Below, piece by piece: positions 53,501 to 63,635 of a DNA stretch of 64,000 nucleotides. Position 1 is the first letter of the stretch, and every line of letters starts with the position of its first letter. This DNA is from Lytechinus variegatus (taxonomy: Eukaryota; Echinodermata; Echinoidea; Temnopleuroida; Toxopneustidae). The translations under genes were made by a program, and so were the position numbers. The DNA lies in NCBI RefSeq assembly GCF_018143015.1, contig NC_054746.1, positions 42,970,201 to 43,034,200 of the forward strand. Reading direction: 5' to 3'. The notes under the pieces are model-generated. The model ran no database searches and was not told the origin of the DNA. It saw only the letters and a list, made by a program, of their open reading frames with translations.

Positions 53501-55615
53501 AGATTTCATGACAATTTGCCCAATATTTACTTTCCTGCACATACTATACATCTGCTTGCAAATCAACCTTCAATAGTAAACTATAATGATCTACATTGGT
53601 ACAAAGTACTAGAAGAATTATGCTCTGAGTATCATATCATTGACTTCACATCATATTTTTGACAGATCAGTTATCACTAGAAGAATGACTATTCTTTCTG
53701 AATATTTTGACCTTCTAAATTTTGATTATTGAAGCCCTAATAAATATTTTGGCATCAGTGAACACTGCGAATCAAGCACACTGTCACACCAGTGAAAATG
53801 ACTCCAAACAAATCTATCACATTATTTCCAATCACAATGGTAGGTTTTTGCTTCATGTTCAAAATATATTTGATTTTTCCTCATGAAAATGTGTAATCTC
53901 CTTTTTCTAGGTTATTTTTCAAAACAGTTTAATTTTAAATTCATATATTTCCTAAACCCATCAGTCTTCCCAGTTTCATATATCTTTTTGATCCGGGGGG
54001 GGGGGGGGGGGGGGGGGGGTGTAAAATTGTTAATTCTGAACTGATTGAAAGATTCAATCTCCTGTTTTGTGGACCAATTTCAGATTCCTAATCCTTAGTG
54101 ATACAGATTGTCTTTCATAAGAATTTCATCATTTTACACAATATCAACAACTTGATTCTAAGAAAGTGAACTCACAGGTAAACATCCCCAGATTCTGTGT
54201 AGAAAGATACGGTGGAGATTGTTGCCACGACAACCAACATACAGAGTGAGACAGGCACAAAGAGCATGATAACGTGCTTAGCTCCATACTTGAGCATCTC
54301 ATCTTCTTCATCTTCTTCCATTGGCGGTGGATTTCTATCCCTCTGTCGTTCTTGGTTAGCTTGCCTGTTTCCTGCATTGGCCTGATCAATAAATAGTAAA
54401 TAAAGTAATAAAATGGGTACATTCACATACTAAAGCAAAAATGATGACAGATCAATGATCTCATGCAATGGTGTAAAATAAACTTGTCATTTCACTTTCA
54501 ATGTTTTCTTTTCAATTTGTCATATTATCTAACTAAACAACTTGTTGATTATGAACTTTAATACATGTAGTATTATCATTTCGAACTTACTGTGGAAGCA
54601 GAATTTTAGGTAATGATTCTACAACTTCAAAATATTCATATTAAACCATTGAAGGTGATGAAGGGCTAAACTGTGCAACCTCAACTACCTAGCTACCCTT
54701 GAAATTCCCTGTTGATTAGACATCGGTTCTAAGTCCTAATGGACAGGGTAAGACCATTTTTCCCCCATGGATATTCTTTCTCCAAATTCAGGCTATTTCT
54801 TTCATTTCCAGGGTTGCATTTTTGCACAAAAATTAATGATCAATTAGCAAGTTTCAATATTCTGCCATATATAAAAAAGAATTAATTATCTAAATATTCT
54901 TGAATATTGTTTGTGACAAATCTTGGGGTGACTCAAAGAAGATGGTCGCCCCAAGCATTCTATTTTGGGAATTTTCAGGGCAATTTGAGCTGTCATGAGG
55001 GCAAAATTGATCATCCTCATGTATTTCATACACTGAGTGGTTCTAAGGTACTGCCTTGCTCTTCTCAGTGCTTACTGCAAGGGGCTGAAACGTTTGTAAC
55101 TGAAAATGGAAAATAATGAATAGTAAATCATGACTACCAGAGTTATGCTAAATTAAGTGCCCACTGTCATTACAAATTTTTAAATCATAAATCAAAACTA
55201 CTAGATTGTAGTTATTATAAAGTGAGTTTAAAGAAATATCACATTCATTGCCATGACAAAAACTATTGAAGATTCAAATTCACAACAGCCAGCAGTAACC
55301 AAATATAATGATAAAAATCCAAGATCTACTTTGTAAAGGGAATGAAATACCTTTAATGATACATAAATCAATTGCAATAATGAAAATGGACACAAATCAA
55401 AAGAAAAAATAATTGTGTCAGAATAAATTTTGATTCAGAATTGTGCAAAACACTAACAATTGAGACCGACAATTGCATTCTACCTTCGTATCATGTTCTA
55501 AACTCACTCTCTGTCTGCCTCTGTGGAAAGATGCCTCAGACCTAGACCTGTCTGGGTTAACAAGAAGCACTGCACACTCATCAACTTCAGGATCACTATC
55601 CTCCAAGCCACTCAT
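44540..55615 (-). CDS. PSEN: Presenilin, catalytic subunit of gamma-secretase, 10 coding exons
   Basis: Coding exons in transcript order: 55484-55615, 54176-54381, 52447-52588, 51395-51462, 50797-51017, 50318-50416, 49461-49559, 48652-48864, 46907-47019, 44540-44695. They join in frame to 1449 nt, 482 aa (human PSEN1 467). Presenilin is the intramembrane aspartyl protease that cuts Notch, APP and other membrane stubs. Seen: disordered acidic N-terminus, [15 protein letters not shown] opening TM1, [13 protein letters not shown], first catalytic aspartate in [14 protein letters not shown] (D257), LIYSSTMVWLV, a variable acidic loop (about 295-393), GLGD (D402), PAL (448-450) and the C-terminal ..QQVYI. 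No catalytic residue is missing. The first exon can also use a GTGAGT donor ending it at 55508 (474 aa); both choices keep frame. An alternative first exon may lie at 63392-63635. Confidence 0.97.
45233..46268. mobile_element. Tc1/mariner-pogo-like non-autonomous element in presenilin intron
   Basis: Near-identical inverted ends of about 28 bp, starting CCATAAGTAACGGTGTAT on the left and CCGTAAGTAACGGTGTAT on the right (reverse complement), each running into TTAACCGCACC. Flanking TA on both sides (45231-45232, 46269-46270) fits the TA duplication of Tc1/mariner/pogo. The sub-terminal motif GGTGCGGTTAATACAC repeats at the right end. The 1036 bp interior has no transposase. Confidence 0.82.
47676..48347. 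mobile_element. Harbinger-like MITE in presenilin intron
   Basis: Inverted ends GGGTCAGATGCATAAAAAG (left) and GGGTCAGATACATAAAAAA (reverse complement of right), flanked by ATT at both sides (47673-47675, 48348-48350). Three-base duplications and GGG starts suit PIF/Harbinger, although ATT is not the usual TWA. The interior is full of AGCAATTGCT and CAAGCAAAAGC motifs; no protein. Confidence 0.75.
50111..50272. mobile_element. Short MITE next to presenilin exon 6
   Basis: Left end GGGTGGTGTTTCAAAAAGCT, right end (reverse complement) GGGGGTCATTTCATAAAGCT. About 160 bp, ending some 45 bp from the donor of presenilin exon 50318-50416. Confidence 0.65.
52336..52367. repeat. (GA)n microsatellite
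   Basis: Run of GA dinucleotides within the presenilin intron, 80 bp downstream (transcript sense) of exon 52447-52588. Confidence 0.95.
52878..53473. mobile_element. TTAA-flanked MITE with long inverted repeats, full copy
   Basis: Starts AGGACAAATCCACCCC and ends with the inverted GGGGTGGACTTGACCT, flanked by TTAA at 52874-52877 and 53474-53477. The inverted repeats extend roughly 190 bp, including CATAACACTGAAAATTTCA. TTAA targets are used by piggyBac and Kolobok transposases; no coding region remains to tell which. Related copies at 30641-30818 and 62290-62874. Confidence 0.87.
53995..54019. repeat. Poly(G) run of about 25
   Basis: Uninterrupted G tract in the presenilin intron just upstream in coordinates of exon 54176-54381. 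The exact length in an assembly is unreliable. Confidence 0.9.
54942..55050 (+). repeat. Unclassified dispersed repeat, copy 2
   Basis: Shares CTGTCATGAGGGCAAAATTG-type and CTCATGTATTTCA segments with the minus-strand copy at 28165-28260. It lies in the presenilin intron between the first two coding exons. Confidence 0.55.
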
Positions 55616-57529
55616 TTTATCTCACGCTTCAATTAGTACCTTTCAGATGATATTTACTGTATTTCTAGTCAGTGTCTTTACAAACTACTTGTTTATTTCA
55701 GTTCTAGTTTCAATTCAAATTAATGTAGTCTTCTGCTTCATCTTAGCAAAGTCAATGTGGTCAATTCTGGGTCGCTTCTTCTCAGGCAGTACTGTATTCT
55801 TCCAAACGTCTGATCTTTTGTACGTAACATCACCTTGGGAAATATCTGCTCAACAATAATATCAAACTGAGTACACCATATCTTGTCGGATTTTGTCGAG
55901 ATCTAACCAGTTCAAAGCATTCCTGCAAGGTAATATGTTGCCAAATGACTAGCGCCATGTGGGATTTGAACACTGCACCTTGTAGACCCAGGCTAGAAAT
56001 AACTATCACTGCTGATCGACAATGCTGATCGACAATAACAGAAATTCACTTCAAATGTAGCAACAAAACATGATTACCAGTACATCAAAATCTTAAGGGG
56101 AGAAACTGGAATGCAAAGAGCTGCTTTTGTTGTATGGTTGTTATCAGCTTAAGAAAATGTTGACATGATAGTTATTACTACATATATCTCATTAGTGGAA
56201 AGTACTTATTCCTCAAATTGATCAAATAGCCCATCACATCATAGTTTTCCAAATATTCTGCCCATTGTACAAAAACAAGTCAAACCAGAATACACTGTTC
56301 ATTATACTTTTACATGCCAACATGTAAAAGTACAATGTATCGTATCACAAGTAAATGGACCCCACTTTGCCAACTATACAACATGGAGCTATAGCTCCAT
56401 GATAAATGATATGGATCAAACCTGACAGTGCAAACAAATAAAATCCATACTTCTATAAAATCAAATACAATAGCACCAACTGCATTCTGTGAAGACAGAA
56501 AACAAAACTTGATCCAATTCCAAAGTCCACGACCACGTTTAAAATGGATTCACAATCGTAAATGCATAATACACATGCACACATGTACAAAACACCAAGT
56601 CTGAACAAATGAAGAACAGAGAGATGATTTTACTGCAACATTTCTGTGATTAATGTAAAGTAGCTACTTCTTCACAAACATCTGCTCCTAGACAGTTGGT
56701 ATACATGTAGTTTAGCACGGCAAGACCCGTCAACATTGATAGAATACATGCAGGTACATGGAGGCCAAAATATCGCACATGAATACACCTATTAATACAT
56801 GTAGATTGTAGATTTGCCCTTTTAGTCTGTATAAAGATATCACCAATAAAACCATTCAGATTGTCTATGATCCGTGGAAGTGTCCAACTAATCCTTGATC
56901 TGGACACACAAGTGATCAAACTCTGATGAGGACACACCCACTTTTTAGTGACAGTAGACCTTACTTTTAAATGCTGAAGTAATAATCCAATCAGGACACT
57001 TTAAAAACTTCATAATCCAAACACTAGCAAGGCATGAAGAGTAGACATCAACACTTTGAGAAAGATATTTGGATTTCAAAAAGAACAAATCAAAGCATGG
57101 CAATACCAATCAACAATATCAAGCAGCTCATAACAATGTTAACACAGAGTAGTGAGAACATACAGCTGGAAACCAGAAGTATCAACAGCCTTTTCTGATT
57201 TTATACCATTCACATTCATCATCCAAATGAAATTACTTAGGTGGTATGGTAGTTTACAGTTTACTGGTACAAAGATTCAACAGATGAATGCACTGCCACT
57301 GATGTACATGTATGTATGAATGAGTTGAATGTAGAAGGAAGCCCTGTGACACTAGCTGATCCGGGTAAAACAGACAATGTCAATAAGGGCACTACAGTGC
57401 AATGTTTAACCAAGATAACAAAGTTAATGGATAATAAATCCTTCACCACATCACCCCCCCCTTAAAAAAAGCCTTTGCATTTAAAGCAAAATTTATTAAA
57501 AAGCAGGTTTCCAAAAAAGGAGTAATTTT
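55616..57529. other. Upstream flank or long first intron of presenilin
   Basis: No gene recognised. A fragment resembling a tRNA-type B box (GTTCAAATCCCAC, minus strand, near 55960) may be a decayed SINE. If the 63.4 kb exon belongs to presenilin, the stretch is intronic in that transcript. Confidence 0.4.
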
Positions 57530-63391: not shown

Positions 63392-63635
63392 CCTTCGTTG
63401 AACAGAGGTGCCACGAACTTCAGCATTAACACTTGTGCCATAGCTTGGATTGTTCGATCCTTCAACCTGGATAGGCCTTCTAGCATTCGAAGCACCATCT
63501 GATGATGGCGGAGCACGTTCTTCAGCCGACATTGTCTCTGTTGGTGCCTGTTCCTCCTCCTCCTCAGCGTCAATCATCAACCGTGTGTTTTCTGTGGAAT
63601 TGTCTTCGTCCTGGTCCCACACACCCATATGGGAG
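63392..63635 (-). CDS. Acidic coding exon; candidate alternative first coding exon of presenilin
   Basis: Strong acceptor (TTTGCTTTTATATTTCCAG) at the high end and donor AGG|GTATGA at the low end enclose 244 nt. From the ATG inside, 79 residues are coded: MGVWDQDEDN start, a glutamate run, then Ser/Pro-rich disordered sequence ending SVQRR. The exon ends in phase 0 and could join presenilin exon 54176-54381, also phase 0, giving about 517 aa. ENTRLM at residues 13-18 matches the position and form of ERTSLM in human PSEN2. It cannot splice in frame to exon 55484-55615 from its likely acceptor, since ATA AAA TGA would stop. It could instead belong to another minus-strand gene entering from the right. 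The acceptor implies an upstream exon. Confidence 0.55.

What the first reader, a model, noticed from the sequence alone, without database searches (positions are those of the whole stretch)
54176..63635. Two mutually exclusive presenilin N-termini, each with an acidic dileucine motif at residues 13-18
Seen: exon 55484-55615 begins with an ATG and has ECAVLL at residues 13-18; exon 63392-63635 has ENTRLM at residues 13-18 of its own ATG. Both end in phase 0 and both could join exon 54176-54381. Known: human PSEN2 has ERTSLM (residues 16-21), an acidic dileucine signal that sends it to late endosomes/lysosomes, while PSEN1 lacks it. Inference: this species may make two presenilins from one gene by alternative first exons, both with the PSEN2-like sorting motif; the motif would then predate the vertebrate PSEN1/PSEN2 split.
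Basis: partly seen in the sequence, partly recalled or inferred. Interest (0 to 1): 0.72.

Follow-up and report, generated by a model that had tools for sequence, protein, structure and literature searches.

The report
Urchin presenilin with two start exons
A sea urchin presenilin gene has two alternative-looking first coding exons, each with a lysosome-sorting-type motif like that of human presenilin-2, which hints (no RNA seen yet) that one gene may make two presenilins and that the motif is older than the vertebrate gene duplication.

Summary
One presenilin gene was found, on the minus strand; exons 54381-44540 give a complete 438-aa core. Two upstream ATG exons, 63628-63392 (B, 79 aa) and 55615-55508 (A, 36 aa), end in phase 0 and join exon 54381-54176 openly. 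I place A's donor after 55508 (6.7 bits), not 55484 (4.5). Among 25 phase-0 first-exon candidates in 19 kb, B ranks first and A next. A's codon score exceeds all 1,759 overlapping open intron frames of its length. B spliced to A gives a stop at all 24 acceptor-like sites examined upstream of A's ATG. CpG depletion suggests transcription starts about 9 kb upstream of B; no clear CpG peak marks A. Each exon holds one [DE]xxxL[LIMV], at residue 13; shuffles give any such motif in 0.09 (A) and 0.025 (B). Homology to the human PSEN2 N-terminus is not shown by alignment, and PSEN2's Ser19 has no Ser/Thr counterpart in either exon.

The parts
63392..63635 (-). Exon B: acceptor before 63635, ATG 63628-63626, 79 codons MGVWDQDEDNSTENTRLM...VQRR, phase-0 donor after 63392
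63575..63592 (-). ENTRLM, residues 13-18 of exon B ([DE]xxxL[LIMV])
55508..55615 (-). Exon A coding part: ATG 55615, 36 codons [18 protein letters not shown]...GRQR, phase-0 donor after 55508 (weaker alternative after 55484); in-frame TGA 9 nt before the ATG
55562..55579 (-). ECAVLL, residues 13-18 of exon A ([DE]xxxLL)
54176..54381 (-). Common presenilin exon E2 (ANAGNRQ...GDVYL), entered in phase 0 from A or B; holds the region before and into TM1
44540..54381 (-). Presenilin core, nine exons, 438 codons with YD, GLGD and PALP sites, to the stop codon
55718..55849 (-). ORF X, 44 codons, coding-like, ends about 100 nt before exon A's ATG; identity unknown, membership uncertain

Best explanation
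A sea urchin presenilin gene with two mutually exclusive first coding exons. Shown in DNA: both exons have a start codon, coding composition, a usable phase-0 donor and an open join to the common exon, and each carries one [DE]xxxL[LM] motif at residues 13-18. Inferred: transcription starts near 72-73 kb (extended coordinates) in a non-coding exon that is spliced to B, giving a 517-aa presenilin as the default product; A is used either from an internal start site or by splicing the 5' leader to an acceptor such as the one before 55922 (7.4 bits), giving a 474-aa presenilin. Inferred from human PSEN2: the cytosolic N-terminus offers the motif to clathrin adaptors, so both gamma-secretase forms would be sent to late endosomes/lysosomes, form A by a canonical ExxxLL without a phosphorylation site inside it, form B by a PSEN2-like ExxxLM.
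For: One presenilin gene found. Phases and open joins. Codon scores above all intron frames of equal length and above the unused frames inside the unit. B ranks 1 and A 2 (and 3, with its other donor) of 25 candidates; next locus 11.9 against 17.1 bits. A's DNA has one match in the genome, itself, so it is not a known repeat. B spliced to A gives a stop at 24 of 24 acceptor-like sites between 56100 and A's ATG. The CpG-poor block of about 40-72.5 kb includes B and 9 kb upstream of it. E2's first 36 codons score 21.8 bits (E2 was in the training set), so a phase-0 coding exon should lie upstream. Motif by chance: 0.09 (A) and 0.025 (B) for [DE]xxxL[LIMV]; 0.036 for A's stricter form [DE]xxxL[LI].
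Against: No transcript evidence. No clear CpG rise at A (0.19-0.60 in 200-bp windows over 55.4-56.6 kb, the 0.60 just upstream of A). Acceptor-like sites within 300 nt of A's ATG score at most 3.4 bits, the low end of presenilin's own range of 2.0-15.6. A short exon's codon score is weak evidence: 4 of 2,132 frames in 72.4-81 kb reach it. B's ATG has C at -3. A and B do not align (3,578 of 5,000 shuffles as good). The motif is short and common; Ser19, which makes the PSEN2 signal phosphorylation-dependent (position recalled), has no Ser/Thr counterpart in either exon.
Confidence: 0.5

Rival explanations
1. Only exon B is the presenilin N-terminus; exon A is a decayed or unrelated coding piece (perhaps, with ORF X just upstream, part of a small nested gene or an unused relic).
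For: ORF X, about 100 nt upstream of A, is also coding-like (0 of 1,153 intron frames as high). No clear CpG peak or strong acceptor close to A. B has a good acceptor and a much higher coding score.
Against: A has a GTGAGT donor in exactly the phase needed, an A at -3 of its ATG, and an acidic N-terminus with the motif. X has no convincing partner exon, no Pfam match, no convincing PDB match and only weak acceptors.
Confidence: 0.27
2. Exon A is presenilin's only first coding exon and exon B belongs to another gene.
For: A is nearer to E2; B's frame is open upstream across its acceptor, so it could be an internal exon; its ATG context is only moderate.
Against: B's donor phase fits E2. A search for internal exons between 63.4 and 55.7 kb gave one weak candidate, 58839-58778 (coding score 3.5). 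The CpG-poor block runs from upstream of B through presenilin, interrupted by patches at 45.0-46.5, 59.0-59.5 and 68.0-68.5 kb, which suggests one transcription unit. B's ENTRLM resembles ERTSLM.
Confidence: 0.1
3. Both exons are used but the motifs are chance matches in acidic disordered tails and do not sort the protein.
For: Any [DE]xxxL[LIMV] occurs in 0.09 (A) and 0.025 (B) of shuffles; alignment to PSEN2 is weak.
Against: Both sit at the same residue (13), within 3 residues of PSEN2's E16; in shuffles a motif at 13 occurs in 0.0031 (A) and 0.0003 (B). This is a post hoc test.
Confidence: 0.13

Closest known systems
Human presenilin-2 (PSEN2), E16RTSLM21
   Same: Presenilin core; cytosolic N-terminus with an acidic residue four before a Leu-Met or Leu-Leu pair near residues 13-16; PSEN2 and exon B share E-x-T-x-L-M.
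   Different: PSEN2 is one of two vertebrate paralogues; here one gene has two candidate N-termini. The Ser just before the Leu (S19) is Arg in B and Val in A. N-terminal alignment is not significant.
Human presenilin-1 (PSEN1)
   Same: Same family; isoform B's first 291 residues match PDB PSEN1 chains best. PSEN1's first coding exon also ends in phase 0 (recalled).
   Different: No [DE]xxxL[LIMV] in its first residues as read; it has E18DNHLS, with Ser in place of the second hydrophobic residue.
Genes with alternative first exons that change a sorting signal
   Same: Alternative 5' exons spliced to a common second coding exon in one phase (kind known from general knowledge).
   Different: Here both alternatives keep the same class of signal instead of gaining or losing it.

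Membership tests
Presenilin (Pfam PF01080) | Profile match over the curated cut-off | tested here: met
   Six exon matches, 34.9-112.1 bits, all in this gene (86 of 3,655 first-look candidates scored); N-terminal halves of isoforms A and B 101.4 and 100.5 bits
Presenilin (Pfam PF01080) | Catalytic YD, GLGD and PALP motifs | tested here: met
   AVYDLF, LGLGDF, PALPIS in the 438-aa core; motifs named from recall
Presenilin (Pfam PF01080) | Gamma-secretase activity | not testable with these tools
   -
PSEN2-type endolysosomal acidic dileucine signal | [DE]xxxL[LIM] in the cytosolic N-terminus | tested here: met
   ENTRLM and ECAVLL at residues 13-18; cytosolic side taken from known presenilin topology (PMC7037278, passage)
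PSEN2-type endolysosomal acidic dileucine signal | Phosphorylatable Ser just before the Leu (S19) | tested here: not met
   Arg16 in B, Val16 in A; B keeps a Thr two before the Leu. S19 as the site is recalled; PMC12858466 (passages) says only that the AP-1 motif is phosphorylation-dependent
PSEN2-type endolysosomal acidic dileucine signal | Binding to AP-1 and late endosome/lysosome location | not testable with these tools
   -
PSEN2-type endolysosomal acidic dileucine signal | Homology to the vertebrate PSEN2 N-terminus | tested here: inconclusive
   Shuffles as good, of 5,000: B against PSEN2 1-80 278, A 1,065; first 30 of B 273, first 25 of A 1,411 against PSEN2 1-30
Alternative first (mutually exclusive) exons | Both exons phase-compatible with a common downstream exon, and not both in one open frame | tested here: met
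   Open joins for A and B; 24 of 24 acceptor-like sites (score above -2, 56100 to A's ATG) give a stop in B-A joins. Of 11 sites inside A, 3 weak ones (score at most 0.3) would allow an in-frame partial cassette
Alternative first (mutually exclusive) exons | Separate transcripts or start sites | not testable with these tools
   No RNA data; no clear CpG peak at A

The most novel reading that the evidence does not exclude
Before vertebrates split gamma-secretase between two genes, a single deuterostome presenilin already made two N-terminal forms by alternative first exons, both carrying an endolysosomal sorting signal of different strength and regulation. Lysosomal presenilin would then be the ancestral state, and PSEN1's wider location a later loss of the second hydrophobic residue of the motif (E-D-N-H-L-S).
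Probability: 0.25. Interest if true: 0.7.

Novelty: new variant of a known kind. Interest (0 to 1): 0.45.

Why it matters
Where gamma-secretase sits helps decide which substrates it cuts, and the PSEN1/PSEN2 difference in location is attributed to one short N-terminal signal (PMC6769103, PMC8466058, PMC12858466; passages read). If a one-gene invertebrate already carries that signal, twice, the order of events (ancestral lysosomal signal, later loss in PSEN1) becomes testable with echinoderm, hemichordate and amphioxus transcriptomes. Alternative first exons as such are ordinary.

Tried and rejected
Repeat origin of exon A: rejected, one match in the genome, itself. Internal promoter at the CpG-rich patch 59.0-59.5 kb: a 138-bp piece of it is a dispersed repeat (99 matches listed; 40 of 1,240 candidates scored), so it is read as a transposon-like insertion. 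Exon B as first exon of a gene ending in ORF X: direct joining at the two nearest acceptors is out of X's frame, and the only internal-exon candidate between 63.4 and 55.7 kb is weak (58839-58778, coding score 3.5); the best phase-1 first-exon candidate for X scores 4.9 bits over 10 codons. Relatives of the presenilin core in viral contigs and genome contigs: 148 and 412 pattern matches, none confirmed. The primary paper on the PSEN2 signal (Sannerud 2016) is not held. Bacterial promoter scan at exon A: uninformative. Structure prediction was not run: the region in question is expected to be a disordered tail.

Controls that cut against the finding: A does not align with PSEN2 (1,065 of 5,000 shuffles as good), PSEN1 (2,835) or B (3,578) better than shuffles; B is borderline with PSEN2 (278) and not far better than with PSEN1 (623). 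The codon null uses overlapping frames of introns that also trained the background; in unused sequence, 72.4-81 kb gave 4 of 2,132 frames above A's score and 38 of 1,324 above X's. Thresholds were set after seeing exon A. Splice-site weights were typed from recalled metazoan consensus, not trained here; part of the coding training set was picked by eye from the ORF list.
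Full report
Gene and species. The window lies in an 869.6-Mb genome in 33 contigs. The presenilin profile gives six exon matches, all in this window on the minus strand (86 of 3,655 first-look candidates were scored), so one gene was found. Bindin matches far over its cut-off, so the organism is an echinoderm and very probably a sea urchin (bindin's taxonomic range is recalled). Nine exons from 54381 to 44540 splice, with GT..AG ends, into a 438-residue core with AVYDLF, LGLGDF and PALPIS. 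The nearest solved chains to isoform B's first 291 residues are human PSEN1 (E 1.7e-87) and PSEN2 (3.1e-79).

The two N-termini. Exon B (63635-63392) has an acceptor, 7 nt of leader, then MGVWDQDEDNSTENTRLM... for 79 codons and a donor in phase 0. Either joins E2 with no stop. E2 is strongly coding from its first base (first 36 codons 21.8 bits, though E2 was in the training set), so a phase-0 coding exon should precede it.

Are they coding? With a codon log-odds score trained on 1,418 codons of the window that include neither A nor B, B scores 29.3 and A 10.5 bits. Of 180 open 79-codon intron frames the best is -2.9; of 1,759 open 36-codon intron frames the best is 9.57 (frames overlap). In sequence not used for training: 0 of 2,389 36-codon frames reach A in 63.9-72.4 kb, 0 of 748 in 37.5-40.5 kb, 4 of 2,132 in 72.4-81 kb. 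Among 25 ATG-to-phase-0-donor candidates between 73.5 and 54.4 kb (donor at least 4 bits, at least 12 codons), B totals 35.4, A 17.1 (17.0 with its other donor), and the next locus 11.9. A scan with a threshold just below A's score found nothing else in the 9.3 kb from B to E2, in 28.8 kb of intron strands or in 200 first-order simulations; it did pick a frame at 81.6 kb in L008, and the threshold is post hoc. A's DNA matches only itself in the genome; B's protein has one further match, weak (E 1.6).

Mutually exclusive? If B were spliced to an exon holding A, 24 of 24 acceptor-like sites between 56100 and A's ATG (score above -2) lead to a stop; of 11 sites inside A, three weak ones would keep frame as a partial cassette. 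So a productive mRNA should use one or the other, apart from that weak exception.

Where does transcription start? Observed CpG over expected is mostly below 0.5 in 500-bp steps from about 40 to 72.5 kb, and mostly 0.5-1.1 beyond (range 0.16-1.10). In sea urchins low CpG marks methylated transcribed bodies (recalled), which puts the start about 9 kb upstream of B, in keeping with B's acceptor and a non-coding first exon. Higher patches lie inside: 45.0-46.5 kb (about 1.0) and 68.0-68.5 kb (0.68), not searched, and 59.0-59.5 kb (1.30), of which a piece is a dispersed repeat. Exon A has no clear peak (0.19-0.60 in 200-bp steps over 55.4-56.6 kb). A therefore lacks this mark of a constitutive promoter; it may have a tissue-specific start or be joined to the same leader by splicing.

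The motif. Each exon has one [DE]xxxL[LIMV], at residue 13. Shuffling residues gives any such motif in 9.0% (A, 36 aa; 13.8% with the 44-aa version) and 2.5% (B), and one at residue 13 in 0.31% and 0.03%. That an acidic dileucine motif sends PSEN2 gamma-secretase to late endosomes/lysosomes comes from passages of PMC6769103 and PMC8466058; that an AP-1 motif is absent in PSEN1 and phosphorylation-dependent in PSEN2 from passages of PMC12858466; and that a conserved sequence near PSEN2's N-terminus binds AP-1 from a passage of PMC6201934. The original paper was not readable. Local alignment does not show homology: of 5,000 shuffles, 1,065 are as good for A with PSEN2, 278 for B with PSEN2, 623 for B with PSEN1, 3,578 for A with B. 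PSEN2's Ser before the Leu is Arg in B and Val in A, so a phosphorylation switch at that place is not conserved.

Unexplained. ORF X (55849-55718), 44 codons ending about 100 nt before A's ATG, is also coding-like: 0 of 1,153 intron frames, 0 of 1,630 frames in 63.9-72.4 kb and 0 of 480 in 37.5-40.5 kb are as high, but 38 of 1,324 in 72.4-81 kb are. It is single-copy, without Pfam match or convincing PDB match (best E 0.59). It has weak acceptors and no convincing partner exon. It leaves open a small nested gene beside A.

Literature. Of ten searches, nine bear on presenilin and one on urchin assemblies. Their listings show no paper on alternative presenilin first exons or on the motif in invertebrate presenilins, but the library holds open-licence papers only, the longer listings were cut at 15 or 20 of up to 541 papers, and I read passages of six papers, so this is weak evidence of novelty.

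Verdict. Observation confirmed with a corrected exon A boundary; interpretation partly supported. I rate B as a presenilin N-terminus at about 0.85, A as a used alternative at about 0.6, and both together at 0.5. The evolutionary inference needs other species.

Noticed in passing
window 55718-55849 (-): ORF X, 44 coding-like codons ending KQKTTLI*, just upstream of exon A; single copy, no family match, no convincing partner exon.
   Followed up: partly
window 61133-62209 (+): Intronless 7TM-receptor-like ORF nested antisense between exons B and A (called by eye, not searched).
   Followed up: no
window 59000-59500: CpG-rich patch (o/e 1.30); a 138-bp piece (59054-59191) is a dispersed repeat with many copies, inside the otherwise CpG-poor transcription unit.
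   Followed up: partly
window 45000-46500: CpG-rich patch (o/e about 1.0) inside a presenilin intron; perhaps a young insertion.
   Followed up: no
L007 906-1536 and 4203-4833: The same translated pieces appear on opposite strands about 3 kb apart: a large inverted repeat upstream of exon B.
   Followed up: no
L008 7744-8205 (-): 153-aa open frame (MNEVQQNEIKFFKK... inside) with a coding score of 15.4 bits for its first-exon part; only a sub-threshold ESCRT-II profile hit (E 0.027).
   Followed up: partly
L023-L026 (contig C13): Two bindin loci about 6.3 Mb apart on one contig, each with both halves of the profile: a duplicate gene or an assembly artefact.
   Followed up: no
window 1656-2657 (-) and 3562-7432 (+): Two protein-kinase-like genes (called by eye) in a stretch with CpG o/e falling from 1.17 to 0.51 per 2 kb, higher than in the presenilin unit.
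   Followed up: no
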